IMG/VR virus record: IMGVR_UViG_3300038426_000075
Span: 1-64,000 of that record
Direction: 5' to 3' (one strand)
Source of the DNA: a virus
DNA: 64,000 bases
Shown: in pieces, positions 11,695 to 57,167 of the stretch
How the letters are laid out: each line of letters starts with the position of its first letter
Numbering within the stretch: the stretch's first letter is position 1
The notes under the pieces: model-generated
Told to the model about the DNA's origin: nothing
Databases searched by the model: none
The model's input: the letters and a program-made list of their open reading frames with translations, nothing else
Position numbers and translations under genes: made by a program

Positions 11695-12323
11695 GTGAGG
11701 TCCTTTCCGGTCAGCGCTCTTTCAACCGACCATCCATTTTTTAATCTCTGCCACAGCGTACCTACTCTAATGCCTAAAGATTCTGCCCAGGCAGTCAATG
11801 TCAGAGTGCGTCCGTTGTGAGTAATAAAATGATTCCTTTGTGTGTTGTTATTCTGCTCCTTTTGCGTAGCCCACCTACAATTGTCAGGAGTATAGCCCTT
11901 GTTGCTATCTTTTCTCTCAATGGTAAGGTGATCCAGATAACCGTTAGCCATCGCCCATTCATAAAACTTTTTAAAATCAAGCCATTCGTCACAGATGATG
12001 ATTCCGCGCCCACCATAGTTGGCATAAGCTTGGTTAGTAGACAATAAACAACGTTTTTTCATGCCCCACCATATTTCATATAACCGAGTCTTAGACAGTC
12101 CATGGGTGGTAAGCTGCTTGCGAGAATTCTCTTTTTTGAGACACCCACAACTTGTATTGAATCCCTTGCTTGCTCTGTGAAGGTTGCTTTGGCTTACCGT
12201 TGCCGTTTTCCCACAGTCACAAATACAAAGCCAGTTCACATTCAGCTGTTTGTTTCTGCCGACCGGTTTCAAAGCCACCAATCTTCCAAATCTCCGTCCT
12301 GTTAAATCTAAGAATCTACTCAT
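11691..12323 (-). CDS. AP2/HNH-type homing-like protein with C-terminal HTH
   Basis: N-terminal LTGRRFGRLVAL with CICDCG and SCGCL as the zinc module; central LYEIWWGMKKRCLLSTNQAY, YGGRGIIICDEWLDF and CRWATQKEQNNN; C-terminal HTH (LTLTAWAESLGIRVGTLWQR). It is the fullest of the three relatives in this window. Both ends are neatly coupled: 8-bp overlap with the gene before and ATGA overlap with the ATPase after. Such precise fit suggests selection for expression with the operon. Confidence 0.82.
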   Translation of the reverse strand: MSRFLDLTGRRFGRLVALKPVGRNKQLNVNWLCICDCGKTATVSQSNLHRASKGFNTSCGCLKKENSRKQLTTHGLSKTRLYEIWWGMKKRCLLSTNQAYANYGGRGIIICDEWLDFKKFYEWAMANGYLDHLTIERKDSNKGYTPDNCRWATQKEQNNNTQRNHFITHNGRTLTLTAWAESLGIRVGTLWQRLKNGWSVERALTGKDLT

Positions 12324-12480
12324 CTTCTTCCTCCTCTTGGTTTTCCACGGACTCCCCTAATACTTCCTCTACCTTCTCACCCTCGAACTGTGCCTGTTTC
12401 AAGGTTTTGATAAGATCTTTCCGCCTTTCCTCATCCCTCCTATCGAGATCGTCTAAGAACCTTGATATCGATCGATTCAT
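12316..12480 (-). CDS. Small acidic-tailed protein (54 aa)
   Basis: Starts at MNRSISRFLDDL after GGAAGGAG with 7-base spacing. It has one charged helix and ends in EEEEDE. Function unknown. It overlaps the following homing-like gene by 8 bases. Confidence 0.55.
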   Translation of the reverse strand: MNRSISRFLDDLDRRDEERRKDLIKTLKQAQFEGEKVEEVLGESVENQEEEEDE

Positions 12481-12519
12481 CGAGTTTCTCCTTCCCAATT
12501 GTCCTGATAAAAGAGATAG

Positions 12520-12681
12520 TCAGACAGTTTCTTCAATCTTGGGAGCCTCCTTTTCTTTCTTTTCCCATCCTTTGAGTTTACCTTGACCTGCAAAAAAGCC
12601 ATGGATCCAAATCATCACAGCACAACCAAAAAATTCAAGAACGGTAATAACCCAAATAATTAAAGGGTCAGGATGTTCCAT
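12520..12681 (-). CDS. Small single-pass membrane protein (53 aa)
   Basis: From MEHPDPLIIWVITVLEFFGC the first 35 residues form a strongly hydrophobic helix ending in a basic and then acidic tail (KKEKEAPKIEETV). I chose this ATG because it follows GATGGGAAG and the previous stop closely; the frame upstream overlaps the preceding gene. Possibly a holin-like or regulatory membrane peptide, but nothing specific can be said. Confidence 0.55.
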   Translation of the reverse strand: MEHPDPLIIWVITVLEFFGCAVMIWIHGFFAGQGKLKGWEKKEKEAPKIEETV

Positions 12682-12686
12682 TTCTT

Positions 12687-12923
12687 TTACTTCCCATCTT
12701 TCTTGACAATCTCCTCGGAGTGAAAAATATTCTTCCCCGTCTTCTTCAGCACCTTGATTGCACACTCTTCAGAGCACACTTCATAGATCGTTCCATTTTC
12801 CACGGGGATTGATTGGACTTTATCACCTACGACAACCTTCTTGGTGATCCTCGGCTGAAACTCAAATATTCGTGGAGTAATCTCTGGACAAACATCACAA
12901 TGAAACAATGAAATTTTAGCCAT
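12687..12923 (-). CDS. Small zinc-binding protein
   Basis: CDVC at 9-12 and CSEEC at about 50-54 make a probable zinc site like the TRASH/MYM type. The remainder is beta-rich (KKVVVGDKVQSIPVENGTIY). GGGAGGAA precedes the ATG. Function unknown. Confidence 0.6.
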   Translation of the reverse strand: MAKISLFHCDVCPEITPRIFEFQPRITKKVVVGDKVQSIPVENGTIYEVCSEECAIKVLKKTGKNIFHSEEIVKKDGK

Positions 12924-12949
12924 GGTTAATTCCTCCCTTTAGAAACATA

Positions 12950-13177
12950 TTAGTAATCTATCCCCTTTCTTGCTGGTGGAATCTTCCTCATTTCTTCCCT
13001 CATCTCATGGTTACTTTTCTCAAGGTAGTTTAATTTATCTCTAAATATGGGACTCACCTGCCAAGAGTAGAAGAACTGTCCGGCAATGAAGCCAATAAGG
13101 ATGCCGAGTATAGCCCAAGCAAAAATATTCTTTAGGTCTGTTTTTTCGCTTCCGCCACAAATCGGACACTTCGTCAT
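12950..13177 (-). CDS. Small membrane protein with zinc knuckle
   Basis: MTKCPICGGSEK at the start is half of a zinc ribbon; residues about 17-40 (IFAWAILGILIGFIAGQFFY) are a transmembrane helix; the rest is a charged coiled coil. The start overlaps the upstream stop (ATGA). Function unknown. Confidence 0.6.
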   Translation of the reverse strand: MTKCPICGGSEKTDLKNIFAWAILGILIGFIAGQFFYSWQVSPIFRDKLNYLEKSNHEMREEMRKIPPARKGIDY

Positions 13178-13410
13178 CTTTGTTGCCTCTTTCCGATAGT
13201 TGCAATCGAATTGCAGCTCGTTTCCTGCTGTCCATTCTCTTTTCTTGGATACCCCCTGGCTGAGTCAATGGCATCATAGACATCTACACCGTGTAAAATA
13301 TAAAGCAGGGAGACCCTTAACTCTTGCTCATCCATGTCTTGGACTATAGGACAAAGAGTTTTTTGAACATTAACCCTATCAAGTTCTGCTAAATAATGTA
13401 TAGCTGGCAT
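13174..13410 (-). CDS. Hypothetical protein (78 aa)
   Basis: Contains DMDEQELRVSLLYILHGVDV and a basic, polar C-terminus. GGGAGGGT precedes the ATG. No family recognised. It is coupled to the downstream membrane protein. Confidence 0.55.
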   Translation of the reverse strand: MPAIHYLAELDRVNVQKTLCPIVQDMDEQELRVSLLYILHGVDVYDAIDSARGYPRKENGQQETSCNSIATIGKRQQR

Positions 13411-13432
13411 GTCATTACCCTCCCATAAGACT

Positions 13433-13457
13433 GGAAGGGAGCTACTGGCCCCCTTCC
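13433..13457 (-). terminator. Intergenic GC-rich hairpin
   Basis: GGAAGGG and CCCTTCC form a 7-bp stem between two genes of the same strand. No clear T-run follows, so it may be a weak terminator or an mRNA-processing structure. Confidence 0.3.
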
Positions 13458-13471
13458 AAACCTTCTCGTTT

Positions 13472-14068
13472 TTACTTCTCCCATATTACTTTCGCCTTGG
13501 ATTCTTGTTTCTCCAAAGGAAGAAGGTAGTAACTGATAACAAATTGCGGATCTGCGGTGTTGACAGCAATCGCTGGCATAATGCTTGCGTTCGAACCATA
13601 AGCTAATGGATTTGTTCCACCACCAAAACCCGCTACGCTTCCCCCGCCACCACCTCCAGAACCAATGGTTCTTGAGGACATCTTAAACTTAACCCTGAAT
13701 CGAATTCGTTCTGTTGAATCCACACCAAACTTTTTCATCACAGAGGAAAGATGTTCTAATATTTCTTTCTCAACATCTTCCAAACGAATACGATCCAAGC
13801 ACCAACCATTAAAAGTCACCACCCTAACTATCTTCTCAGTAGTCAAGGGTTTAACCTGATCAAACTGAGGCATTTCTTTTGTTGCATCCCCAACTACACC
13901 TGGAAGCATCTGGAGTAAATAGGGATAGATCGGCTGAGGCATTAGATACTGATAGCCCGAGCTTGAGTATGCGATTGCCTCAGATCCAGCTATAACTCCA
14001 GGACCATCAGCAAAAGCAGTTCCAGTTACCAATATCAATAAAATAATTGTCATCAGAAATTTCTTCAC
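13472..14068 (-). CDS. Exported protein, unknown function
   Basis: A GTG start after AAGGAGGTG gives a clear Sec signal peptide (MKKFLMTIILLILVTGTAFA, cleavage after AFA). The mature part has MPQPIYPYLLQMLPG, a central alpha/beta region and a glycine-rich linker (GSGGGGGGS), then a final folded segment. Export of an early-region phage protein is unusual. Together with the next gene it may alter the envelope. No family recognised. Confidence 0.65.
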   Translation of the reverse strand: MKKFLMTIILLILVTGTAFADGPGVIAGSEAIAYSSSGYQYLMPQPIYPYLLQMLPGVVGDATKEMPQFDQVKPLTTEKIVRVVTFNGWCLDRIRLEDVEKEILEHLSSVMKKFGVDSTERIRFRVKFKMSSRTIGSGGGGGGSVAGFGGGTNPLAYGSNASIMPAIAVNTADPQFVISYYLLPLEKQESKAKVIWEK

Positions 14069-17074: not shown

Positions 17075-17536
17075 ATGAAAACTAAAGAAGAAATACGCTC
17101 ACTTTTTTCAGCAAGATTACGTGAAATTGCCCAAAAAAGATTTGGTTATCAACCCGGAAAAGATCACGGAATGCGAACAGATATCGCAAATGAATTGAAG
17201 ATTAGTGTCGGAACGGTACAGCAGTGGTTTGATGAGGAAAAAGAAACTATGCCCGATGTTATGCAATTCCTTAAAATTCATGATGCCTTTGGAATTACCC
17301 CGAATGAACTTTTGGGGATTGAAGAGATACAACCTAAAGAATTCATTCCTCCTGTAGAAATTACAGAGGATTTTGTATCATTCCCAATACAAATATTTGA
17401 CTCAACCATTCAAACCGGTGGCCAATTCTTAGGGCAGGTCATCATTCACAAAAGGGTGTTTGGAAGAAGAAAAAACCTTGCTGCCGTTTACCTAAATGGG
17501 GGAAAAGAAATAAAAGTAGTGATTGTTGGAAAATGA
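17075..17536 (+). CDS. CI-like repressor
   Basis: The N-terminus has a helix-turn-helix (RTDIANELKISVGTVQQWFD) and IHDAFGITPNELLGIEEI. The C-terminal 55 residues (FVSFPIQIFDSTIQTGG, then KNLAAVYLNGGKEIKVVIV) look like a short beta-rich dimerisation domain without a recognisable S24 protease dyad. At 153 residues it is shorter than autocleaving CI proteins. No Shine-Dalgarno sequence precedes the ATG and the predicted transcript start is about 18 bases upstream, so weak translation from a short leader is likely. Its HTH resembles that of the protein at 18305. Confidence 0.7.
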   Translation: MKTKEEIRSLFSARLREIAQKRFGYQPGKDHGMRTDIANELKISVGTVQQWFDEEKETMPDVMQFLKIHDAFGITPNELLGIEEIQPKEFIPPVEITEDFVSFPIQIFDSTIQTGGQFLGQVIIHKRVFGRRKNLAAVYLNGGKEIKVVIVGK

Positions 17537-18300
17537 AAAGTATCTTAAAGGGCACAAAGAGAAAAACCCTACTTTCCGTATTGACAATCGTTGTCCTCTC
17601 TAGTTGTTCGGTCAATGATTTCTTTGGCCACCAAACCACACAATATATCGCCGTTAGAGAGGTAAAAGGCAAAAGTACGCTCAAAGGTACATACGATGTT
17701 GAGCGGGCACTTAGTGAGGGTGTTCCAGAAGAAGAGATAGCACGGTATCTTGCTATTACCCGCAACTTTGACGTTGATAGGTACATAAAGGCGGGCTTCA
17801 CATATAGGGAGATAATTGATTACCTTGCCAAGCAGCCTAAAATAGGCGGAGAAGTAAAGATAGAATGGAAACGTCACAAAATAGTGTACAAAGTCTATCC
17901 CGATAAACAGGATGTCGTCTATTGGGTAGAGACTTCCGATGGTAAAGAACGTTCTCCACTTTCTCGGGTTGGAAACTGCATTGTGGCGGATTCTGATAAT
18001 TGGGAGGGAGAGATGGATTATGGTTCTTGGCCCTGGCCAAGGAGAGTTGAAATTATTAATGGAAAGTCCAAATTTGATGGTCTTGAGTTGACGAAAGTTG
18101 GATGGTGGAAGTGGAATTTTGACAAGGAAAACTTTCAGGGTTCAGTAATTATCAGTACGACTTGGTTTGTGTGGAACAATCATTTGGTATGGATTCTATC
18201 GGGCATTGGGGTCCTTTTAATTATCCTATATGGTTGGCATTCCGATACCGAAGATAAGAAACGCAAGAGGCAGGAAGCAAGGCAAGCAAAGGAGGAATAG
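17533..18300 (+). CDS. Lysogeny-module lipoprotein with virion-type repeat
   Basis: A signal sequence with lipobox (VVLSSC, C25 by count) starts a 255-residue protein. Residues about 54-100 contain two repeats ending EEEIARYLAITRN and YREIIDYLAKQ, about 60% identical over 48 residues to the N-terminus of the giant virion protein at 21152. A beta-rich domain with many Trp and Tyr residues follows, then a C-terminal membrane helix (WILSGIGVLLIILYGW) and a basic tail. It overlaps the repressor gene by 4 bases (ATGA), so it should be made in lysogens. An inner-membrane anchored periplasmic protein, perhaps for superinfection exclusion, is my inference. Confidence 0.75.
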   Translation: MKSILKGTKRKTLLSVLTIVVLSSCSVNDFFGHQTTQYIAVREVKGKSTLKGTYDVERALSEGVPEEEIARYLAITRNFDVDRYIKAGFTYREIIDYLAKQPKIGGEVKIEWKRHKIVYKVYPDKQDVVYWVETSDGKERSPLSRVGNCIVADSDNWEGEMDYGSWPWPRRVEIINGKSKFDGLELTKVGWWKWNFDKENFQGSVIISTTWFVWNNHLVWILSGIGVLLIILYGWHSDTEDKKRKRQEARQAKEE

Positions 18301-18601: not shown

Positions 18602-19048
18602 ATGAAAATTACAACCCTAAGTGCCTTTCTTATTGTCCTGCTTATTCTTCCTACCCCGATACTCGCTCAAAAAAATTACCTCATTATTGACGGGAAGAAA
18701 TACGAACTTGCTCCAGGACCAAGTTATTACGATGCCCATCCTGAAGAGAGAAACGCTACAACCCAACCCAACAAACCAATTGATGGCACTGGAACAAGAG
18801 AACAAGGGAATGAAGGAGGAAGCCATATCGATTACCCCTCGGCCCCTCCACCGCCACCCCCTTCATCTGCACCTCCTCCTCCATCTATGCGGATCGGCGT
18901 TCGTGGTGGAGTAATTGATGGCCAAACAGGGGATTTTTACCCACAAGTAAAAGGCGGTGTAGTTAATCCTCGAACCGGAGAATTTCTACCTGATGTTGAA
19001 AAAGGATATATTGATCTGGGAACAGGTGAATTCATCCCCAAGCGATAG
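18602..19048 (+). CDS. Secreted proline-rich repeat protein
   Basis: Signal peptide (LIVLLILPTPILAQ), then YYDAHPEER (a motif found as YYDVHPEER in the virion protein at 27903), a polyproline stretch (PPPPPPSSAPPPPS), and three C-terminal repeats of about 18 residues of the form GGVIDGQTGDFYP, GGVVNPRTGEFLP, GYIDLGTGEFIP. CAAGGAGG precedes the ATG. As part of the lysogeny operon it is probably a conversion protein acting in the periplasm or at the surface. The repeat unit is also known from other phage and bacterial proteins; its role is not known to me. Confidence 0.65.
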   Translation: MKITTLSAFLIVLLILPTPILAQKNYLIIDGKKYELAPGPSYYDAHPEERNATTQPNKPIDGTGTREQGNEGGSHIDYPSAPPPPPPSSAPPPPSMRIGVRGGVIDGQTGDFYPQVKGGVVNPRTGEFLPDVEKGYIDLGTGEFIPKR

Positions 19049-19051
19049 ATA

Positions 19052-20179
19052 ATGGCTTCAATCCAAAAATTCGCCAGGCTTGGCCACCGGATTTATTGGA
19101 GACTTTATCTTCCTGACGGCACATTTAAAGAAAAGTACAAAGCTTCCAGCTCCAAGACGGTCCTGCAGGAGATTCTTGCAGACATTATCAAGATCGAATC
19201 TCTTTCACGCCGGAGAGAACTATCGGGGCAGGATCTTGTCCGGGCCCTGAACATGGGGATCATCACTCGGGCCGAAATAGACTTCTTCAGACCTCACGTA
19301 GAACCCCTGGAACCACACTTTCTTGTGGAGTTGAGGCCGGAGTTCGAAAATCTCTCGAAAGCCCAATCAACAGCCCACCACACCCACATGGCCAACCTCT
19401 CCAAGGCAAACGTTATTGAGGAGTATTTCCGGGCCATTCCGATAAATGAGATCACGCCAGAGGCAATCGAAAGATTCAGGGTGGAACGGAAGCGAACGGT
19501 CACAAACACGACGGTCAACCACGACCTGAAGGTCCTCCGGAAGTATCTGGATATCGCCGTAAGCAAGAAATTGATCAAGAATAACTCGGCCAGAAAGACC
19601 ACACTTCTACGTGAACCAAAGGACAGAATTCCAAGGTGCTTCTACCCCGCTGAGTTAAAAACTTTCTTCCGGGGACTGAAAAGATTTAGACACCTCCTTT
19701 ATGGGGAGATGCCTTTTATTGTCCGTACCCTTATCTACACCGGCCTCAGAAGATCGGAACTTTGCAATCTGAAGCCCGAGAATATAAAGTTCCACCTTCG
19801 TCAGATCCATCTGATCGGCAAGGGCAGGAAGACCAGAATCGTAGGAATCCACCGATCACTTGTCAGGGAATTCAGAACCAGGATCAAAAAGGGTTACATC
19901 CTTCGACCCGGGATTGATCCGTCATCTATCAGCCATGCGTTTAAGAAAATGATTAGAGGTTTGGATCTTGCTGAAGCACTCACTCTGCATTCACTTCGTC
20001 ATACCTACATCTCTTATCTCCTTGAAAAAGGCGCCCCGACAAAGAAGGTCCAGGAGCACGCCGGCCACTTCAGCCTTGCCGTGACAGACCACTACACCCA
20101 TGCACTACCATCTGAGGTTGTGATTGAAGATATACTTGATTTTGAGGGTCCAAAAGTGGACAAAAGAGGCAAAAAATAG
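19052..20179 (+). CDS. int: Tyrosine-family integrase
   Basis: The 375 residues have an N-terminal arm-binding region, a core-binding SAM-like domain (about 105-185) and a catalytic domain with R233 (TGLRRSEL), K258, H313-R316 (HSLRHTY), H339 (GHF) and Y348 (DHYTH). All catalytic residues are present. It directly precedes a tRNA-Gly 3' fragment and arm-type repeats, so it should integrate the phage into a host tRNA-Gly(CCC) gene. The last gene of the lysogeny operon, 3 bases after the secreted protein. Confidence 0.95.
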   Translation: MASIQKFARLGHRIYWRLYLPDGTFKEKYKASSSKTVLQEILADIIKIESLSRRRELSGQDLVRALNMGIITRAEIDFFRPHVEPLEPHFLVELRPEFENLSKAQSTAHHTHMANLSKANVIEEYFRAIPINEITPEAIERFRVERKRTVTNTTVNHDLKVLRKYLDIAVSKKLIKNNSARKTTLLREPKDRIPRCFYPAELKTFFRGLKRFRHLLYGEMPFIVRTLIYTGLRRSELCNLKPENIKFHLRQIHLIGKGRKTRIVGIHRSLVREFRTRIKKGYILRPGIDPSSISHAFKKMIRGLDLAEALTLHSLRHTYISYLLEKGAPTKKVQEHAGHFSLAVTDHYTHALPSEVVIEDILDFEGPKVDKRGKK

Positions 20180-20203
20180 GGCTAAATAGGGTGAAAAAAT
20201 CGG

Positions 20204-20447
20204 TACTTTGGCGATACCAATTTTATAACAGTTCGATTTCATTAAATTGCCCCAGGCTTCCCAAGCCGAGGGTCGCGGGTTCGAACCCCGTTGCCCGCTC
20301 CACTAAAATCCCTAATAAAACCCACGAAATGGCCAATAATAAGATATCTTACGGATCAAACAACCCCAAGGATCATTTTCTATAATTTACTATTTTTTGG
20401 GTAAAAACTGGTTTTGGAGTGATTTCGTAGCGATACTTTGGCGATAC
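20204..20447 (+). repeat. Direct repeats flanking attP, candidate integrase arm sites
   Basis: TACTTTGGCGATAC occurs at 20204-20217 and again at 20434-20447 in the same orientation, one on each side of the tRNA-like core. Such flanking repeats are what arm-type integrase sites look like. The left copy is followed by C and the right by T. Confidence 0.65.
20255..20302 (+). other. attP core: 3' half of tRNA-Gly(CCC)
   Basis: From the anticodon loop (TTCCCAA) through the variable loop, the T-arm (GCGGG-TTCGAAC-CCCGT) and acceptor strand to the encoded CCA, this is the 3' half of a tRNA-Gly(CCC). The 5' half is missing and the outer anticodon-stem pairs do not match, so it is not a functional tRNA. 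It lies 76 bases after the integrase, and virion genes follow on the other side, as expected for attP in a circular or free phage genome. Confidence 0.85.
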
Positions 20448-20891: not shown

Positions 20892-21155
20892 CTACAGACC
20901 CACCATTTTGAGAAAAGCTAAGGCCTTCTCAATTTTTTTATGGAAATGCGAAAGTTCTGTAATTGTTTCGACAGATCTCTTAAAAGATAACTTGGTGTTA
21001 ATTGTTTTAAAGGAATACTCCATGGCCGTAGAAGCCTCCCTTATGCTCGCTATACATTCATAAATCAGCCCGAGGGAACGATAGAACTTAAACGGGAAGG
21101 TGATTTTTAAATAAATTATTTTTAATGCTTTCCCAAGCCGTTTATGATTCATCAT
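20892..21155 (-). CDS. Hypothetical helical protein (87 aa)
   Basis: A basic, helical product (LGKALKIIYLKITFPFKF, then FKRSVETITELSHFHKKIEK). It starts at an ATG overlapping the stop of the giant virion gene (ATGA), so is translated after it. Function unknown. Confidence 0.55.
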   Translation of the reverse strand: MMNHKRLGKALKIIYLKITFPFKFYRSLGLIYECIASIREASTAMEYSFKTINTKLSFKRSVETITELSHFHKKIEKALAFLKMVGL

Positions 21156-24100
21156 AGTCCCATGCCAGGAGGAAGATAGGATGGCGCCCCCTGCCCCGGA
21201 GGATGAACCCTCTTTTTGTCGTTTTCGCCCCTACCCATAAAGGCCGGAATAGCAAATGGAATGGCAGAATAAACCGGAGGAATTTGTACTTTTTCGGCAG
21301 CATATTTTCCCATGGCATCTGCCAAATTGCTTTGTGCCTTTTTTATGTCTTTAAAGAATCTATTATTCAAAGGAATGAGTTTCCCAAGTCTTTTGACAAT
21401 CCGGTCAATGATGTTTTTTGCAACGTTTACTACCTTCTTGAACAAAGAAGGCTCCCGATCATGTAAGATGTTCCAAAAATCCTTATTCATGAACTGCTGG
21501 CCAGAAAAATCAGCATAGAGTTCTTCTTTCACTTCTTCAGCACTTTCAAACCTCGGCATCCCAGATTGTTTCTTAGACAGATTTAAACCAACACGGTATA
21601 CGGAAAAATCTTGAATGAGATCGTCAGTCGCATCTATAAATTTTTTATAGAGAGTAGGCTGCTCACTTTTTAAGGTGTGTATAAGTTCATGTCCTATCAC
21701 AAAAAGATGGGGAGCACTAGATTTTATATGGAGATATATGGTGTCTGGTTCTTCGGGAATTACGATGCCATTAAAGGAGACTACTTCTTTTGTATCAAAG
21801 AAGACCACTTTTTTGCCGAAGGTCCGTCCAAGTTCACTAATAGCCTTCCCACTCTTAGGCACACGGACCTCGGCCAGGGCATCATCAGCCAGTTTTCTTC
21901 CGGTTGACGATTCAATTTCGGATTTGAGCTTTTTGATGGCTTCTGTAATCCCAATTTTTTTGATTTTTGACTCATCGAAGGCTCCTTTCATTTGCGATAT
22001 TTCTTTTGTCTCAAATTCCTTTTCATGGGCTTGAGCATATTTAATGGCATCGCCTTCAGTGTTTCTTGTCCCTGCCAATTCACCATCGGGTCGATAAATA
22101 TCAAATTTACCGGCAACTTCCTGAATTTTGTACCCTTCTGGGAGTTCTATCTTCGAGACATCTGAAAATGGAAATCTTCCCTTATTCTCTTCCCACCACT
22201 TGGCTGCCTTTTCTTCCGGCATTATAGCTTTATTAAAACGGATAGCTTGTGTGACCTCATCTCCGGTAGTCTTATCCTTACCCATAATATAAGAAACACC
22301 ATTCGTGCGGGATTTTCTGCGAAAATAGGAGACCCCTTTTATGTTGGTGCTTGGAAGAAGTCTGAATCTTCCCTCGTTTTCAGTTGAGTTGGGATCGAAG
22401 GTAAAAGGACGGGATTCGCCTTTTTTCCAGTTACCCGCTTTCTCCTCCACTGGTGCTGGCTCCAACTTCACGCCCGCAAATTTCTTGCTGGCCTCAAACT
22501 TGGCGGGGTCTTCCCGATATTCGTGCTCATCCTGGCTGGATAGCTTGTGAGCATCGGGATACTTCATTCCCTGGTTTATTATCCTGTCCCGCTCGGTCCC
22601 CTCGTGGACGATGATGGCGGTGCGCTCTTCGGGACTGATCTGGTCATCAACGGCAACGGTATTTTTAGGAAACCACTTATAGGCCCCATCATTACCGCCT
22701 TCTGTCCAGCTTGAATCGACTTTCCGAATCATGTCACCATCTACAAGCCAAACCTGTGTTTTATCCTTGCCGATTGTTCCTAAAAGCTGTTTTTTGGCAT
22801 CTTCAATAAGCTGTGGATTTAGTTTTTTATCTGATTTTTGGGGAGGGTTGTCTCTCGTTCGTTCCCGTTGCTCGATGGCATTCCCTTGTTTAAGAGCTTC
22901 ATCGTATGACTTCCCCTCAGACATCAATTGTCTTTGTTTGGTCGCATTGTCCAATAGATAACCATAGTCTGCGTTCTTAATCTCTTTATCGAGCCAAATC
23001 TCATTCTCTGGAATGTAGGGAGAATTTTGATGGTAGGAAAAATTGGTAAACTCCTCGTCAATATTTTTTCGGATAAGATCCCCATCAACAATAAAAGCTG
23101 TGACAGGGCCTTCTTTTTTGTATTCTTTGGCGTTTACTTGGGTGTGAAGATCGGCGGGGGATATCTCGGCCAGGGGTTCTTTTACGACGGGGGAAGTTTC
23201 GGATTCGGTGAGAGCTTTCTTAATTGCTTCAAGGTCTGGAGGTCCCTCTTCAGTCTCAATAGTTTTTTGAGCCTCTCCAAGTCTTCTGGTGATATTTTCT
23301 TCGGAGATTCCTTTTCCACGCTGTTCCTCCTTCCAACCCATTATCTCATTATCAACGCTTGCTGTCAAGGATTGAATAGCTTCTTTTTTGGATGTCCATA
23401 AATCCGCTTCCGCCCGATCTTGGATAATGGCATTGGCTGTCTGTTTTACTCTCTCAAAAATCTGCTGTTGGCGAAGTCCTAACTTTTCACCATTTAAGCC
23501 TTTATTGATCGCCTTTATGGTTTCTTCCTTTCCGGCAGATATCCCACCTAACATTTGTTGAATCTTCATTGAAGAACCATATCGTCCTTCACCTTCAGCA
23601 AGAACTCCTCCAGCCTCACCACTTTTAATGATACCTTGGAGTTCGCGAATCGTACCAGCTAGTTCTTCACCTAAAGGTTCAGCAAATGGCAACCTTGGAT
23701 ACGCCTTCTCCCTTTCAGCCTGAACCGCAGCCTTACCCGCTTCACCTAAAGGTGTCCCTTCAAGGGTAGGCGTAGCTCCCTCTTTGGCACCTTTCATCTC
23801 CAAACCTTGTTTGATGCCAGGGAGAGCAAATTGATCTTTAGCGGTCGGGGAGAGTGCGGGTTTCTCTATTGGAGCAATAGGTGCAGGTGCCCCCTCGATT
23901 TTCTCTGCTGGTACGAATTCCCCCGTCTTCTTCATTGTATATCCACTTATGGCCTTCTCGGGATCCAGCCCTTCGTCAGCGATAATTTGACCATGAACTG
24001 AATCCGTATAGACCTTTCCGTCCTGCATCACAGCTACCTTATCAATCTCTGGATACTCTTCTGGCATGAGCTCAAGGTGCTGAGCCGTCGGGGGAATTGC

Positions 24101-26224
24101 CTGAGTTGCAAGTGATTGCAAGTCGGGGTAGTCGGCTAAAACTTCGGGGGAGACGGGTTTGCCTTTTTCAACAGCATCCTGCACTTCATATTGATGGAGT
24201 GATCTTGCCGTTTTCTTATCAAGAGTACCTTCTGGGTTGCTAGGATCAATTGAGCGGTCAACAAATTCCTTTTTTGTCATCTCCCACGGTTGCTTTCCTA
24301 CCATATCTGCCAGATTGACAGTTTCTTCAAATCCCTTCTCTTTATGGTGTCTAAGTTCGTGATCAAGAGCCCTTTGGAAACCTTGTCTACTTAAATCCTT
24401 TCTTAGATAGATATTGCCCTCTGCATCATTTGTCGAACCTAATCCAGTCCCCTCAACACCTTTTGGGAGTTCAACTTCTTCAACCTTATAAACCTTATGG
24501 CCTTCTACCTCAAAATAGTCCGTAGATTGATTAGGAACCTGGGATTTAAAGCGATTAAATAGAGAATCATAATTAATAACCCCCTCCTCACTCACTGGCA
24601 TGCCCTCTTTTGAGACTTCTTGACCAGCAAGGGGTTCGGTAGCCTCCATAATCGGAAATTCTTCGGGTGGAAGTTTGGCCGCTTCCTCCATATCTTTACG
24701 GGCTATTTCAGTAATAATATTCTCTTTTGGCTTCGCAACCGTCGGCATTTGCTGCCCCATCCCCATCATCTGGGGGATTGGTTGAGGAATAGGGGCTTGA
24801 ATGGGTGGTGCTGTCGGTGTTGGCTGTGGAGGTAGAGCAATTGGACCGACTCCCATCGGCAGAATTGGCTGAGGTGCTTCAATCGGTGGTGCCTCTGGCC
24901 GTGGAGCGATAGATGATGCCGGCGGCATGGTGGTTCCGACAGGTTCTGGTGTCTCGGTCCCAATTCCAGGAGGTCTTACCGGTTCTGGTTCTCCCGTAAT
25001 AGGGTTAATTTTAAACTCTGTTCCAACGGGAGCTTTTAGCCGCAAGATCGTCTTGGGTTTGGGTTCCATTAGCTGAAAACCTTGGCCTGGAGGCAATGCC
25101 AATTGAGCTCCTGCCTTTATTTCTGTAGCCGGTTGAACTGCTGGAGTCCCGGGGGCAGGAATCGTCGAGCCGACAACTTCTGGAACTTCCGGCGCCATCC
25201 CAGGAGGAGTAATTTGTGGACTCTCTGCGGGCTTGCCTGCCTCTGCAAAGGGAGGATATTCCTCTCCTTTGTTCCTTCGTCTCAGAGCCTCTTCCCTCCA
25301 CGATGGATTGTTCCAACGCCTTAGAACATCGCCTTCGGAATATCCCTTGTTCATCATGTCCTCAAGAGACTGTGTAACAAGACCACGTTCCTTATTTGTA
25401 AGGCTTCTAAGCCAAGGACCTATTGGCGTTTTTAAAAATCTGGTTAATACCGCTGGTAGTACTTCCTCCGCAATGGTACCAGCCGCTCTCATAGCAGTTG
25501 GAAAAGCTGCCCATTCCGCAGCAGTCATTGTTTCTTTTGCCAAGGATTCATAGGGAGAAATCTTCTTTTTCCCAGTAACCAATTCTTTCTCGATCTCTTT
25601 CAATTTCTCTGGATCAGTTGTCGTCCCAGGGGGGAAAAAGTCTCCCTTTAATTCTGCTCGACCTTCCTCTCCTGCATATTTCCCAAAGGGAATCGTAAAT
25701 TTTGCCACTTCCAATGCTGTCGGCGGAATCGCAGCCAAATAGGGATGGCGAGCAGCAAAGGGAGAAGTGACAACTTTAGGTTCGACAACGGGAGGCACCT
25801 TTGGTGTCGGCTTTACTGGCTCATGCGAAGGAATGGGTTCCTCTTTCGGAAATCCCGACAAATCAACTCCTGCTTCCGCAGGTGTTTCACGTGCAACCAC
25901 AGCTGTCATTGGAGAAGGCTTCGGTCTCTCTATCGGCTTCATGAGGTTCGGGTTGATCAAACCGGGAGGGGTGATAGGTGACACTGTTCGTTCCGGGACA
26001 AGAGGGGTAGGGGACTTCTCAACGATCGGTTTAGGCAAGGCTTCCTGTACGGTAGGTTTTGCTACAATACTCTTTTGAGGAGCGAGGTATTCGATGACCT
26101 CCCGATAGGGGACTCCTGCCTTCACAGCATCATCAAGCCGATAGTTTCTAGTTGCGGCCAGATGCTTAGCTATCTCTTCTTCTGGTACTCCATCCTTAAG
26201 TGCCTGCTCATAATTATATGGCAT
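21152..26224 (-). CDS. Giant polyvalent virion protein with metallopeptidase-like domains
   Basis: At 1690 residues it resembles phage polyvalent proteins ejected with the DNA. Residues 3-50 hold two repeats (GVPEEEIAKHLAATRN, VPYREVIEYLAPQ) shared with the lysogeny lipoprotein. A proline-rich region follows to about 500. HExxH occurs as HELRH at 622-626 and HELIH at 1512-1516, the second inside a zincin-like domain (VIGHELIHTLKSEQPTLY). Between them is a tandem duplicated module at about 1045-1125 and 1160-1235, each starting VDGD(L/M)IRK. The second copy has VHEGTERD, H1207, while the first has LDNATKQR, so it has lost these residues. The C-terminus is Pro/Gly-rich. It probably acts on host targets after entry or processes virion proteins. 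Confidence 0.75.
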   Translation of the reverse strand: MPYNYEQALKDGVPEEEIAKHLAATRNYRLDDAVKAGVPYREVIEYLAPQKSIVAKPTVQEALPKPIVEKSPTPLVPERTVSPITPPGLINPNLMKPIERPKPSPMTAVVARETPAEAGVDLSGFPKEEPIPSHEPVKPTPKVPPVVEPKVVTSPFAARHPYLAAIPPTALEVAKFTIPFGKYAGEEGRAELKGDFFPPGTTTDPEKLKEIEKELVTGKKKISPYESLAKETMTAAEWAAFPTAMRAAGTIAEEVLPAVLTRFLKTPIGPWLRSLTNKERGLVTQSLEDMMNKGYSEGDVLRRWNNPSWREEALRRRNKGEEYPPFAEAGKPAESPQITPPGMAPEVPEVVGSTIPAPGTPAVQPATEIKAGAQLALPPGQGFQLMEPKPKTILRLKAPVGTEFKINPITGEPEPVRPPGIGTETPEPVGTTMPPASSIAPRPEAPPIEAPQPILPMGVGPIALPPQPTPTAPPIQAPIPQPIPQMMGMGQQMPTVAKPKENIITEIARKDMEEAAKLPPEEFPIMEATEPLAGQEVSKEGMPVSEEGVINYDSLFNRFKSQVPNQSTDYFEVEGHKVYKVEEVELPKGVEGTGLGSTNDAEGNIYLRKDLSRQGFQRALDHELRHHKEKGFEETVNLADMVGKQPWEMTKKEFVDRSIDPSNPEGTLDKKTARSLHQYEVQDAVEKGKPVSPEVLADYPDLQSLATQAIPPTAQHLELMPEEYPEIDKVAVMQDGKVYTDSVHGQIIADEGLDPEKAISGYTMKKTGEFVPAEKIEGAPAPIAPIEKPALSPTAKDQFALPGIKQGLEMKGAKEGATPTLEGTPLGEAGKAAVQAEREKAYPRLPFAEPLGEELAGTIRELQGIIKSGEAGGVLAEGEGRYGSSMKIQQMLGGISAGKEETIKAINKGLNGEKLGLRQQQIFERVKQTANAIIQDRAEADLWTSKKEAIQSLTASVDNEIMGWKEEQRGKGISEENITRRLGEAQKTIETEEGPPDLEAIKKALTESETSPVVKEPLAEISPADLHTQVNAKEYKKEGPVTAFIVDGDLIRKNIDEEFTNFSYHQNSPYIPENEIWLDKEIKNADYGYLLDNATKQRQLMSEGKSYDEALKQGNAIEQRERTRDNPPQKSDKKLNPQLIEDAKKQLLGTIGKDKTQVWLVDGDMIRKVDSSWTEGGNDGAYKWFPKNTVAVDDQISPEERTAIIVHEGTERDRIINQGMKYPDAHKLSSQDEHEYREDPAKFEASKKFAGVKLEPAPVEEKAGNWKKGESRPFTFDPNSTENEGRFRLLPSTNIKGVSYFRRKSRTNGVSYIMGKDKTTGDEVTQAIRFNKAIMPEEKAAKWWEENKGRFPFSDVSKIELPEGYKIQEVAGKFDIYRPDGELAGTRNTEGDAIKYAQAHEKEFETKEISQMKGAFDESKIKKIGITEAIKKLKSEIESSTGRKLADDALAEVRVPKSGKAISELGRTFGKKVVFFDTKEVVSFNGIVIPEEPDTIYLHIKSSAPHLFVIGHELIHTLKSEQPTLYKKFIDATDDLIQDFSVYRVGLNLSKKQSGMPRFESAEEVKEELYADFSGQQFMNKDFWNILHDREPSLFKKVVNVAKNIIDRIVKRLGKLIPLNNRFFKDIKKAQSNLADAMGKYAAEKVQIPPVYSAIPFAIPAFMGRGENDKKRVHPPGQGAPSYLPPGMGL

Positions 26225-26226
26225 GT

Positions 26227-27900
26227 CTACTCACTTTCATAGCGGGAATGGTCAACAGGAACTCTTGTTGCTGCTGGTTTTTCTACCCTACCCGCAAATC
26301 CCAGTGGTGCAAGAACTTCTGGTTTCGTTCCAATCTCGGCAATTTTTCTTATTGGTCCCCCAACTTTCTTAGCGGCCCAACCATAAGTGTTCAGGAATTC
26401 CCCCACTGCTCTCGGAGAACTTGCCAAAAGAATAGGCCAAAATTTAGGATTTATGAATTTTAAAAGAGCCGCTCCACCACCTGCTGCGAGCACCTTTCCC
26501 ATTGATCCCCTTGGAATCCATTGTTTTCCCACATACCCAGCAACCTCAGCAGGGATATCAACCCCGGATTTATTCCCTAAAATCTGCATAAGATCTTTTC
26601 TCATCTCAAAGTTTTCTCTCAACGCTGAAGAGAGTCTCCGAAGAGTGTTATCAGCGGTTATTCTACCTATGGGGAAGGTCGCACCTTCTTTTTTTAACAT
26701 CAGGTTACTTTCTATATCTTTTATGAGATTGGTCGCTTCGGCGTATCCCTTTGTCATCTTTTCATATTCAGGTATTGCACCTTTGAGACCTTTGCTAAGA
26801 TTGTTCTCAAGTCGGGTTAAAAATACCTCCGCAGGACTTTGTTTTTCCACCTGATCTATGTATTTGCTCAATCTCTTTTTTAAATTATCGAGTCCCAATA
26901 CCGTATTATCTTCCCAGTTCGTAACGTCTTCAATTGCCCTTTGGACTACATCCCGGTTCTTAACAAGAGGGCTTTGACTAAAATCCAGCTTAGTCCTGGC
27001 GTGCGTGCCCTTCCATTGCATAGAGGTTCCTATCTGAAATTCATCTGGTCCCATTAGTTTAGCCAGCTCTTGGTCCAAACTGCTTCTTACCTGAGTAAAT
27101 GCTCCGGGGGTAGCCCTCACTTTCGCCAATTCAGTAGTGTAAGCACTTCCACGCTGATCCCTGAGACTTTGCAGAGCGTCTTTAGCGTGATCAACAACTT
27201 CTTCTCCCGTAAGCTTTCCCCTCATCGCCTTGGTAAATGCTTCACTCCCTTTAGCCGCTTCCTCAATAAATCCTGGCCCTCCTCCTGTAAGAGCTCCGAC
27301 AGCTTCCTTTGTGGCTTTTCCAACGGCACCCACTATTGGTTTCGCAACCTTCAGGGGTAGGGTTAACGGATCCGTAACCGTTGCCGCAGTCTCCAATACC
27401 TTAGCCGTTCTACCTAACCCAGCAAGTTTTGCACCTTTTCCAGCCAACCCAAGCCCCCCAGATGCAAGTAGAGCAGCATCCACTGGTTTCTCATAAAGGT
27501 AATCAAATGCCATCCCTGGTATTTTGAGAGGGCTTTGATAGGCTTTGACAATGGGTTTTGAAACTTTCTCAAATGCCGCTTGCGCTTCTGGCGTGGCTGG
27601 TTCACCTGTGACCTTTTCCAATCCTCCTCTTATTATCTGGCCCGCCGCCTCTCCTACATTTTCAGCCGTTCGAAATGGGTGAGTAACGGCCGTAACGAGT
27701 CCCTTAGCGACATCAGCCACATTGGTTCCGACATTGCTTACAAACCCGCCAATGGATTTCCCGGGCGGCGCAGGCGGTCTCGGTCCAGTAGTTTTTGTCT
27801 GTTCGATTTGATTAATTAAGGCAGAATCAGTAACCGCTTGCCCTTTATTTGCCTCTAATTGTTTAATAAGTTCAGGATCAGTAACCGCACCATTTGCCAT
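26227..27900 (-). CDS. Internal virion protein with VTDxxLIxQ repeats
   Basis: The start MANGAVTDPELIKQLEANKG is followed by VTDSALINQIEQTK, a two-unit repeat common at the N-termini of podovirus internal or ejected proteins. The rest (558 residues in all) is helical with glycine-rich hydrophobic stretches (AALLASGGLGLAGKGAKLAG) and a C-terminal HSRYESE. I chose the ATG at 27900, which follows GGAGAATAGCC at the stop of the upstream gene. Likely forms part of the ejection apparatus. Confidence 0.65.
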   Translation of the reverse strand: MANGAVTDPELIKQLEANKGQAVTDSALINQIEQTKTTGPRPPAPPGKSIGGFVSNVGTNVADVAKGLVTAVTHPFRTAENVGEAAGQIIRGGLEKVTGEPATPEAQAAFEKVSKPIVKAYQSPLKIPGMAFDYLYEKPVDAALLASGGLGLAGKGAKLAGLGRTAKVLETAATVTDPLTLPLKVAKPIVGAVGKATKEAVGALTGGGPGFIEEAAKGSEAFTKAMRGKLTGEEVVDHAKDALQSLRDQRGSAYTTELAKVRATPGAFTQVRSSLDQELAKLMGPDEFQIGTSMQWKGTHARTKLDFSQSPLVKNRDVVQRAIEDVTNWEDNTVLGLDNLKKRLSKYIDQVEKQSPAEVFLTRLENNLSKGLKGAIPEYEKMTKGYAEATNLIKDIESNLMLKKEGATFPIGRITADNTLRRLSSALRENFEMRKDLMQILGNKSGVDIPAEVAGYVGKQWIPRGSMGKVLAAGGGAALLKFINPKFWPILLASSPRAVGEFLNTYGWAAKKVGGPIRKIAEIGTKPEVLAPLGFAGRVEKPAATRVPVDHSRYESE

Positions 27901-27902
27901 GG

Positions 27903-55748: not shown

Positions 55749-57167
55749 CTAAAAGTGAAAGTCGTCTCCCTTCATGGCGTTCACTTCTTTGATAATTTGA
55801 AGCACATCCGTCTCGAACTTTGCAGGAAACGAGCTATTGGACATCTCGATCTGGGAAGCGATCTTACCGGCCGCATCCACTGCGGCTTTCGGAGTCTTCC
55901 CGTGGCCCATGGCGGTCGCAACTACCTGATCGCCGGGAACAAACCAATAGTCTCCCGCCTTCCTTACGATGCGCCTAAAGCCCATGTCTTTTCTTATTTC
56001 TTGAGGAAAGTGGATCACCTCCCATGATTTGATATCGTCGGTGTAAACGCCGACCTGTGTGACGTATCCAGGATCCACTTCGGCCCGAACGTCCTGACCG
56101 GCCGCAATCTTGTAGGTATATTCGGGATAATTCTTTATGAATCTGGATTGGATCGCACCGCAGGGCCACGCATCACGAGAGGTTGGATCGTGGACTCTAA
56201 CTTTCCTTCCGTCCCAAAAGAATTCGAAGCTGATATTCCCATGGTAACCAGACTTGATCAGGGAAGGCTTTACTTTGTTGAGAATATGCTCATCGATCCC
56301 ATTTTCTTCCACCCAAACTCCGATGGTTCCCTCTCCTTTGACTTCTATCGTGTAGAGGAAGGGCCGGATATAATCCCTTCCATTGAAACCTACGTCAACA
56401 CCCAATTCGAGGCCTGGACACGCACGCTGGATCAGGATCTCCATGGTGGTAAGATATGGCCCAAAACCGGCCTGTGTAAGAGCCACGAGGGCCTGTGTTC
56501 GGGTCTTTACCCCCTTCCCCGTCTCTTTATTGCCTCGATATTCGCCAACCTTCGGGAAGAAGAGCGTCTTTCCATCCTCGTTCTTTTCGATGTAATCAAG
56601 GCACTCATCCAAACCATGAACCACGACACCATCAGGGACCCCCACACCCATCTCTTGGAGCCTCTGCCATCCCTTCACACGATTGTTTTCATTCTCTGCC
56701 CACCACGCAGAAGGTCCATAAACGTCTTTGCCTTCTCCACGCCAGATATCGGCATCCTTGCCAAAGCAACAGTCGGTAATGACAACAAAATCCTTGGAGG
56801 CAGCCTCCATCATGCTATCCACCTTATGGAGTCCCTTAAACCCATCTCCTGAAATTTTGTTCTCAATGGACGGGTAGGCCGCCGCGCCGGCAATAAAATA
56901 ATAGACTTCGAACTCCTTCATCAGTGCAAGGGCATGATCAATACCCAGGTTCGTATCGATGAAGCCAACGGTCCGCGGCATCCCATGTTCTCGCTTAAGC
57001 ATAGGAAGAGCTTTGGTCGCTTTTGCTGTCTGATAATTGGCGATTTCTGCATAGGAATATCCTTCTTTGTGCGCCTCTTCGACCTTAAAACCCGTAAATC
57101 CAGCGAGATAAAAAGCTATCTCCCGGTATGAATGACCCTCTTTTCTTTGGCCTTCAACATCGTACAT
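55749..57167 (-). CDS. ATP-grasp protein, PurD-like
   Basis: After N-terminal repeats (YREIAFYLAGFTG, YAEIANYQTAK) related to those of the lipoprotein and polyvalent protein, the body looks like an ATP-grasp ligase: YGPSAWWAENENNRVKGWQR as a PurD-like GPSK region, LFFPKVGEYRG and GKGVKTRTQAL as the ATP-binding strands, FFWDGRKVRVHDPTSR, and GHGKTPKAAVDAAGKIASQI as the C-terminal GxT.eA motif of PurD. The substrate is unknown. Placement right after the portal gene (overlapping by 1 base) suggests modification of a virion or surface molecule. Confidence 0.6.
   Translation of the reverse strand: MYDVEGQRKEGHSYREIAFYLAGFTGFKVEEAHKEGYSYAEIANYQTAKATKALPMLKREHGMPRTVGFIDTNLGIDHALALMKEFEVYYFIAGAAAYPSIENKISGDGFKGLHKVDSMMEAASKDFVVITDCCFGKDADIWRGEGKDVYGPSAWWAENENNRVKGWQRLQEMGVGVPDGVVVHGLDECLDYIEKNEDGKTLFFPKVGEYRGNKETGKGVKTRTQALVALTQAGFGPYLTTMEILIQRACPGLELGVDVGFNGRDYIRPFLYTIEVKGEGTIGVWVEENGIDEHILNKVKPSLIKSGYHGNISFEFFWDGRKVRVHDPTSRDAWPCGAIQSRFIKNYPEYTYKIAAGQDVRAEVDPGYVTQVGVYTDDIKSWEVIHFPQEIRKDMGFRRIVRKAGDYWFVPGDQVVATAMGHGKTPKAAVDAAGKIASQIEMSNSSFPAKFETDVLQIIKEVNAMKGDDFHF

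What the first reader, a model, noticed from the sequence alone, without database searches (positions are those of the whole stretch)
17533..18300. Lysogeny lipoprotein carries the N-terminal repeat of the giant ejected virion protein
Seen: over 48 residues the lipoprotein and the N-terminus of the protein at 21152 agree at about 29 positions (GVPEEEIA, LA.TRN, KAG, YRE.I.YLA). Related repeats start the ATP-grasp protein at 55749. The lipoprotein has a lipobox and a C-terminal membrane helix and lies in the repressor operon. Inference: in the lysogen it could engage, mimic or sequester the incoming protein of a related phage, as a new superinfection-exclusion mechanism, or share a host partner.
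Basis: partly seen in the sequence, partly recalled or inferred. Interest (0 to 1): 0.8.

Follow-up and report, generated by a model that had tools for sequence, protein, structure and literature searches.

The report
Lysogeny lipoprotein wearing an ejection-protein tag
A temperate phage carries, next to its repressor gene, an envelope-anchored lipoprotein that displays the same 50-residue helical tag found at the very start of large phage proteins encoded in infection (ejection) gene clusters, which suggests, but does not yet prove, that the resident phage uses the copied tag to jam incoming relatives.

Summary
Residues 54-104 of the lipoprotein (17533-18300, +) match residues 3-53 of the 1690-aa protein (21152-26224, -) at 30/51 positions (E 2e-16); the 55749 protein shares a weaker copy (20/44). 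There are only three copies in the 88-kb phage record. The repeat is one compact four-helix module (AlphaFold pLDDT 90). It is an unnamed N-terminal tag of large phage proteins: in about 100 viral contigs (at least 26 otherwise unrelated protein families) it almost always starts at residue 1-30, directly behind a ~500-aa gene that in several cases is a recognised ejection protein or transglycosylase. The lipoprotein is the only tagged protein with a signal peptide. Its tag groups with the giant proteins of its own phage lineage (support 0.87). A sister phage has a 100% identical repressor but lacks exactly this ORF, and its giant carries a divergent tag (25/53) while the next ~350 residues are 85-97% identical. 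I infer an accessory superinfection-exclusion lipoprotein displaying a decoy of an ejection-protein docking tag in the periplasm (0.45). It works like P22 SieA or TP-J34 Ltp but is a member of neither. Exclusion, expression and binding are untested, and only one such lipoprotein is known.

The parts
17533..18300 (+). lipoprotein gene, 255 aa: signal peptide, lipobox, linker, tag, strand-rich domain of unknown fold (about 105-205), C-terminal TM helix, basic tail
   Evidence: ATGA overlap with the repressor stop
17596..17607 (+). lipobox LSSC (residues 22-25, Cys25)
   Evidence: sequence
17692..17841 (+). tag module in the lipoprotein (residues 54-103), four helices
18163..18231 (+). predicted transmembrane helix, residues about 211-233
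   Evidence: hydropathy; helix 211-254 with pLDDT 77-90
21152..26224 (-). giant 1690-aa protein of the probable ejection cassette; tag at its N-terminus
26069..26218 (-). tag module of the giant protein; swapped relative to sister phage G001
26227..27924 (-). 565-aa protein directly upstream of the giant, weak tape-measure-like match; candidate docking partner of the tag
55749..57167 (-). 472-aa protein beside the portal gene with a weaker copy of the tag at residues 2-45
57015..57164 (-). tag copy in the 472-aa protein
17075..17536 (+). repressor-like HTH protein, 100% identical in sister phage G001
18305..18577 (+). second HTH protein; in G001 it follows the repressor directly
18602..19048 (+). 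secreted 148-aa protein in a second variable slot; shares a 15-residue match (11 identical) with virion-cluster protein 27903-30764
19052..20179 (+). tyrosine integrase

Best explanation
The gene is an accessory lysogenic-conversion (superinfection-exclusion) gene. Inferred mechanism: in the lysogen the lipoprotein is made with the repressor, exported, lipid-anchored and held by a C-terminal membrane helix, so that its tag faces the periplasm. The same tag forms the N-terminus of the giant ejection-cassette protein of this and related phages. There it probably docks that protein onto a partner during assembly of the DNA-delivery conduit, most likely the periplasmic tunnel protein encoded just upstream. 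The resident copy occupies that docking site on the incoming conduit as a decoy, so the superinfecting phage fails to deliver its DNA. Shown: the homology, the topology signals, the operon position, the precise presence/absence, the tag's position in ejection cassettes, and the lineage of the lipoprotein's tag. Inferred: expression in the lysogen, localisation, docking partner and exclusion.
For: (1) 30/51 identity, E 2e-16. The lipoprotein tag scores as canonical as real virion tags (4e-18 against 5e-18 for the giant). (2) Start codon overlaps the repressor stop; the sister phage has a 100% identical repressor and lacks exactly this ORF. The second slot before the integrase also holds different envelope-type genes in the two phages. 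(3) The tag lies at the N-terminus of 81 of 84 tagged ORFs, in 26 downstream families, and of 30 more in a second scan. 77 of 79 follow a large same-strand gene within 60 nt, median 507 aa. Among ten such neighbours tested, two match PHROG 'released from the phage upon host infection', one an SLT transglycosylase, one a virion endolysin. (4) Structure hits for the module are large polyvalent, LT_GEWL and PcfJ-like phage proteins. (5) The tag tree places the lipoprotein with the giants of its own lineage, support 0.87. (6) The giant's tag is exchanged between sisters together with the upstream gene, while the next ~350 residues are 85-97% identical. (7) Precedents: P22 SieA acts on gp16/gp20 (PMC10883804); Ltp's repeat domain acts on the tape measure protein (PMC3952083); T7 gp16-N sits in the periplasm and cements the gp15 tunnel (PMC8954989).
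Against: Only one such lipoprotein is known: none in IMG/VR, the GTDB genomes or phage records by close-relative searches. Selection on it therefore cannot be measured. The host is unknown, and no expression or exclusion data exist. That the giant is ejected is inferred from context. Upstream partners fall into about 30 families, so a single conserved docking site is not obvious. The model of the rest of the lipoprotein is poor (pLDDT 49). The sister with a different tag has the same repressor, so against that phage ordinary immunity would already suffice.
Confidence: 0.45

Rival explanations
1. The lipoprotein binds the incoming giant protein directly, tag to tag (homotypic association), rather than the giant's docking site. 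The outcome is the same: exclusion.
For: The tag is one compact helical module with strongly conserved Gly, Ala, Ile and Leu positions across 26 families although upstream partners vary, which fits self-association.
Against: No dimer prediction was run; no direct evidence of self-association.
Confidence: 0.15
2. The tag binds a conserved host envelope partner. The lipoprotein uses it for lysogenic conversion or to occlude that host factor, without touching virion proteins.
For: Strong conservation of the tag across unrelated phages and its presence on a portal-side protein are compatible with a common host partner. The SieA authors also kept a host-occlusion alternative (YajC, PMC10883804).
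Against: Tags sit in ejection cassettes and, between the sister phages, were exchanged together with the upstream virion gene.
Confidence: 0.2
3. Chance capture: the tag was picked up by recombination and the lipoprotein has another function, or none, unrelated to the tag.
For: A single instance; no relatives of the remaining 200 residues; phages recombine freely.
Against: An intact ORF fills the insert exactly and is translationally coupled to the repressor. Its tag is as canonical as in virion proteins despite 42% divergence and saturated synonymous sites, so constraint has lasted.
Confidence: 0.12
4. A member of the Ltp-type exclusion lipoproteins that acts on a tape measure protein.
For: Lipoprotein in the lysogeny module with two helical hairpins; the 565-aa neighbour matches a tape-measure PHROG weakly (E 0.001).
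Against: No match to the Ltp Pfam family up to E 10 among the families listed; no PDB match of the module.
Confidence: 0.05

Closest known systems
P22 SieA (PMC10883804)
   Same: Prophage-encoded inner-membrane protein; proposed target is the ejection proteins that build the transenvelope DNA conduit; optional among related phages.
   Different: SieA has three TM helices, no signal sequence and no lipobox. I did not compare the sequences; the passages read describe no copy of a virion module in it.
TP-J34 Ltp superinfection-exclusion lipoprotein (PMC3952083; Bebeacua et al. 2013)
   Same: Lysogeny-module lipoprotein with a spacer and a repeat domain that is the active part; blocks DNA injection by acting on a virion protein that is ejected (tape measure protein).
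   Different: Gram-positive surface lipoprotein described as lipid anchor, spacer and repeat domain, without the C-terminal TM helix seen here; no detectable sequence relation here; interaction attributed to charge, not to a copied virion module.
Phage polyvalent proteins (PMC5512222)
   Same: Large multidomain phage proteins; two of the four best structure hits of the tag are annotated as large-polyvalent-associated.
   Different: A search of that paper's text for six terms (N-terminal or helical repeat, lipoprotein, signal peptide and others) found only one passage on superinfection. The lipoprotein itself is not polyvalent.
T7 gp15/gp16-N ejectosome (PMC8954989)
   Same: The N-terminal part of the largest ejection protein sits in the periplasm and holds the tunnel made by the neighbouring gene's product; model for what the tag may do.
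   Different: No homology tested or claimed; gp16-N is a transglycosylase plus tape, not this module.

Membership tests
Ltp-type exclusion lipoproteins | signal peptide with lipobox | tested here: met
   LSSC at residues 22-25
Ltp-type exclusion lipoproteins | match to the Ltp family profile (Pfam) | tested here: not met
   no such match for the protein at E up to 1 or the tag alone at E up to 10 among those listed
Ltp-type exclusion lipoproteins | active domain folds like the solved Ltp repeat domain | tested here: inconclusive
   Foldseek against PDB: no hit with E below 4; VIA-align compared only 9 chains
Ltp-type exclusion lipoproteins | acts on the tape measure protein | not testable with these tools
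   needs experiment
SieA-type exclusion proteins | about 160 aa, three TM helices, no signal sequence | tested here: not met
   255 aa, signal peptide, one C-terminal TM helix
SieA-type exclusion proteins | blocks DNA injection by acting on ejection proteins | not testable with these tools
   inferred only
N-terminal tag of phage ejection-cassette proteins (defined here) | profile match to the about 48-residue two-hairpin module | tested here: met
   E 4e-18
N-terminal tag of phage ejection-cassette proteins (defined here) | module at the extreme N-terminus of a large protein next to an ejection-type gene | tested here: not met
   the lipoprotein is small, exported and in the lysogeny operon; module at residue 53. 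It carries the module but is not such a protein.
known anti-phage defence systems (PADLOC) | profile match | tested here: not met
   no family for the lipoprotein

The most novel reading that the evidence does not exclude
A temperate phage has copied the N-terminal docking tag of its own ejection protein onto a membrane-anchored periplasmic lipoprotein, as a dominant-negative decoy that jams assembly of the DNA-delivery conduit of any superinfecting phage with a related tag: exclusion by mimicry of the phage's own virion protein. The conserved tag itself would be an unrecognised docking or ejection module shared by at least 26 phage protein families.
Probability: 0.38. Interest if true: 0.82.

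Novelty: new variant of a known kind. Interest (0 to 1): 0.6.

Why it matters
If true, it gives a simple sequence handle on how lysogens block related phages: look for envelope proteins that carry a piece of an ejection protein. It also makes a specific part of an ejected protein, a 50-residue N-terminal tag found in very different phages, a testable candidate for the docking signal of the DNA-delivery conduit, a poorly understood step of infection. The tag has no Pfam name, so even without the exclusion idea it marks an unnamed module that helps annotate ejection genes.

Tried and rejected
Close-relative searches for the whole lipoprotein in IMG/VR, GTDB genomes and GenBank phages: none. Repeat-pattern scan of GTDB genomes: no confirmed relative; the patterns were narrow, so absence from bacteria is not shown. 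Early tblastn hits in Salinibacter phages lie in an integrase-like ORF, the Acinetobacter phage HFM1 hit in an unrelated coiled-coil-type protein, and the microvirus hit in an unannotated stretch: rejected as chance. Whole-lipoprotein AlphaFold model too poor to search. PDB profile hits with E down to 3e-7 are designed helical repeat proteins matched by many very weak stretches: rejected. Pfam hits to DUF5338, SinI, HTH_38 and DUF7626 are below cut-offs or in few members. In-place positive selection on the giant's tag was rejected: synonymous sites are saturated in the tag (dS 1.3 against 0.08-0.5 beyond), so it is an allelic swap. Tag-upstream against tag-downstream association across loci is only suggestive (median tag identity 0.60 against 0.53, non-independent pairs).

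Full report
Observation. The ORF at 17533-18300 (+) encodes 255 residues with a basic start, a hydrophobic stretch, a lipobox LSSC with Cys25, and a single C-terminal hydrophobic helix followed by a basic tail. Its ATG overlaps the stop of the repressor-like gene 17075-17536 (ATGA). BLASTP against the 1690-aa protein 21152-26224 (-) gives 30/51 identical, E 2e-16; against 55749-57167 (-) 20/44, E 1e-6. A profile finds only these three places in the whole 88,038-base virus record. In an all-against-all comparison of 157 ORFs the lipoprotein/giant pair has E 1.7e-15.

What the shared piece is. It is a module of about 50 residues made of two ~25-residue helical hairpins. AlphaFold on eight natural copies gives mean pLDDT 90 and helices at 7-12, 17-27, 32-37 and 42-50. 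No Pfam family passes its cut-off and no PDB fold matches. In the viral structure library the four best hits, all with probability 0.90 or more, are giant phage proteins: two 'large polyvalent protein associated', one LT_GEWL (transglycosylase) and one PcfJ-like protein.

Where it occurs. Scans of IMG/VR returned 72 and then 30 loci (some contigs shared). An iterated HMM over all ORFs of the loci held found 84 tagged proteins. 81 start at residue 30 or earlier; the exceptions are this lipoprotein (residue 53) and two related podovirus proteins with an internal copy. Beyond the tag the proteins fall into 26 families with no detectable similarity to one another. In 77 of 79 loci a same-strand ORF (median 507 aa) ends within 60 nt upstream. 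Of ten such neighbours scanned, two match the PHROG 'released from the phage upon host infection', one carries an SLT transglycosylase domain and one matches a virion endolysin family. The second scan gave 30 more ORFs, all with the tag near the N-terminus and none with a signal peptide. So the module is an N-terminal tag of large proteins in phage ejection cassettes, and the window's lipoprotein is the one exported protein that wears it.

Origin of the lipoprotein's tag. In a tree of 65 distinct tags the lipoprotein groups with the giants of this phage and its two relatives (support 0.87); identities are 58, 54 and 52% against at most 44% for all others. It was therefore probably taken from this phage's own lineage, long ago: synonymous sites between it and the giant are saturated.

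Sister phages. G001 (IMGVR_UViG_3300027896_000014) is collinear. Its repressor is 100% identical and the downstream HTH gene 89% identical, but the lipoprotein ORF is cleanly absent: the repressor stop is followed after about 20 bases by the HTH start. The slot between the HTH gene and the integrase also differs: a secreted 148-aa protein here, a TM protein plus a 90-aa secreted protein in G001. That is the pattern of a lysogenic-conversion region. In the giant protein, residues 1-53 (the tag) are 25/53 identical between the two phages, while residues 53-400 are 85-97% identical per segment. The upstream 565-aa gene has no significant counterpart in G001, where a 695-aa protein that itself begins with one hairpin-like unit takes its place. 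The more distant G009 shares the 565-aa gene (52%) and a tag close to that of the window. The tag thus travels with the upstream gene rather than with the rest of the giant, as expected if the two products meet; simple linkage is not excluded. Across all loci the association is only suggestive.

Mechanism. The proposal is exclusion by decoy. [quoted passage not shown] The Ltp lipoprotein of TP-J34 stops DNA injection through a repeat domain that acts on the tape measure protein (PMC3952083). In T7 the N-terminal part of gp16 lies in the periplasm and holds the gp15 tunnel (PMC8954989). If the tag is the docking piece of the giant onto the tunnel made by its neighbour, a membrane-anchored periplasmic copy would compete for the same site. 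Shown: homology, location signals, operon position, accessory status, cassette context, lineage. Inferred: expression in the lysogen, export, partner, exclusion. No profile of known defence proteins matches.

Limits. The identical repressor in G001 means that exclusion would matter chiefly against phages of other immunity with a related tag.

Verdict. The sequence observation is confirmed.

Noticed in passing
window 18602-19048 (+) and 27903-30764 (-): A second lysogeny-operon envelope protein (secreted, 148 aa) shares the motif GPSYYDAHPEER with a virion-cluster protein (GPEPTYYDVHPEER, 11/15, E 0.001); the motif in the virion-cluster protein is conserved in G001. It may be a second case of an envelope protein carrying a piece of a virion protein, or chance.
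   Followed up: partly
L015 (G001) 11872-13959, and window 26227-27924: The proteins upstream of the giant begin with short hairpin-like units of their own (G001: LRQAGFSEDEISQHI; here a two-unit VTDPELIKQLEA / VTDSALINQIEQ), so short N-terminal helical tags may be general in these cassettes.
   Followed up: no
window 21152-26224 (-): The giant contains HExxH-type motifs (HELIH near the C-terminus, HELRH in the middle), and the G001 homologue HEWAH, as in the zincin-like domains of polyvalent proteins.
   Followed up: no
window 55749-57167 (-): The 472-aa tagged protein directly follows the portal gene (1-nt overlap) and is 89% identical in G001; no family profile matched it, so its enzymatic class remains open.
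   Followed up: partly
window 20191-20385 (+): A reading frame with the sequence RVAGSNPVARSTKIP, typical of a translated tRNA 3' end, lies just after the integrase: possible attP within a tRNA fragment.
   Followed up: no
window 26097-28865 against G001: One exchanged block covers the C-terminal third of the 953-aa protein, the whole 565-aa gene and most of the giant's tag.
   Followed up: partly
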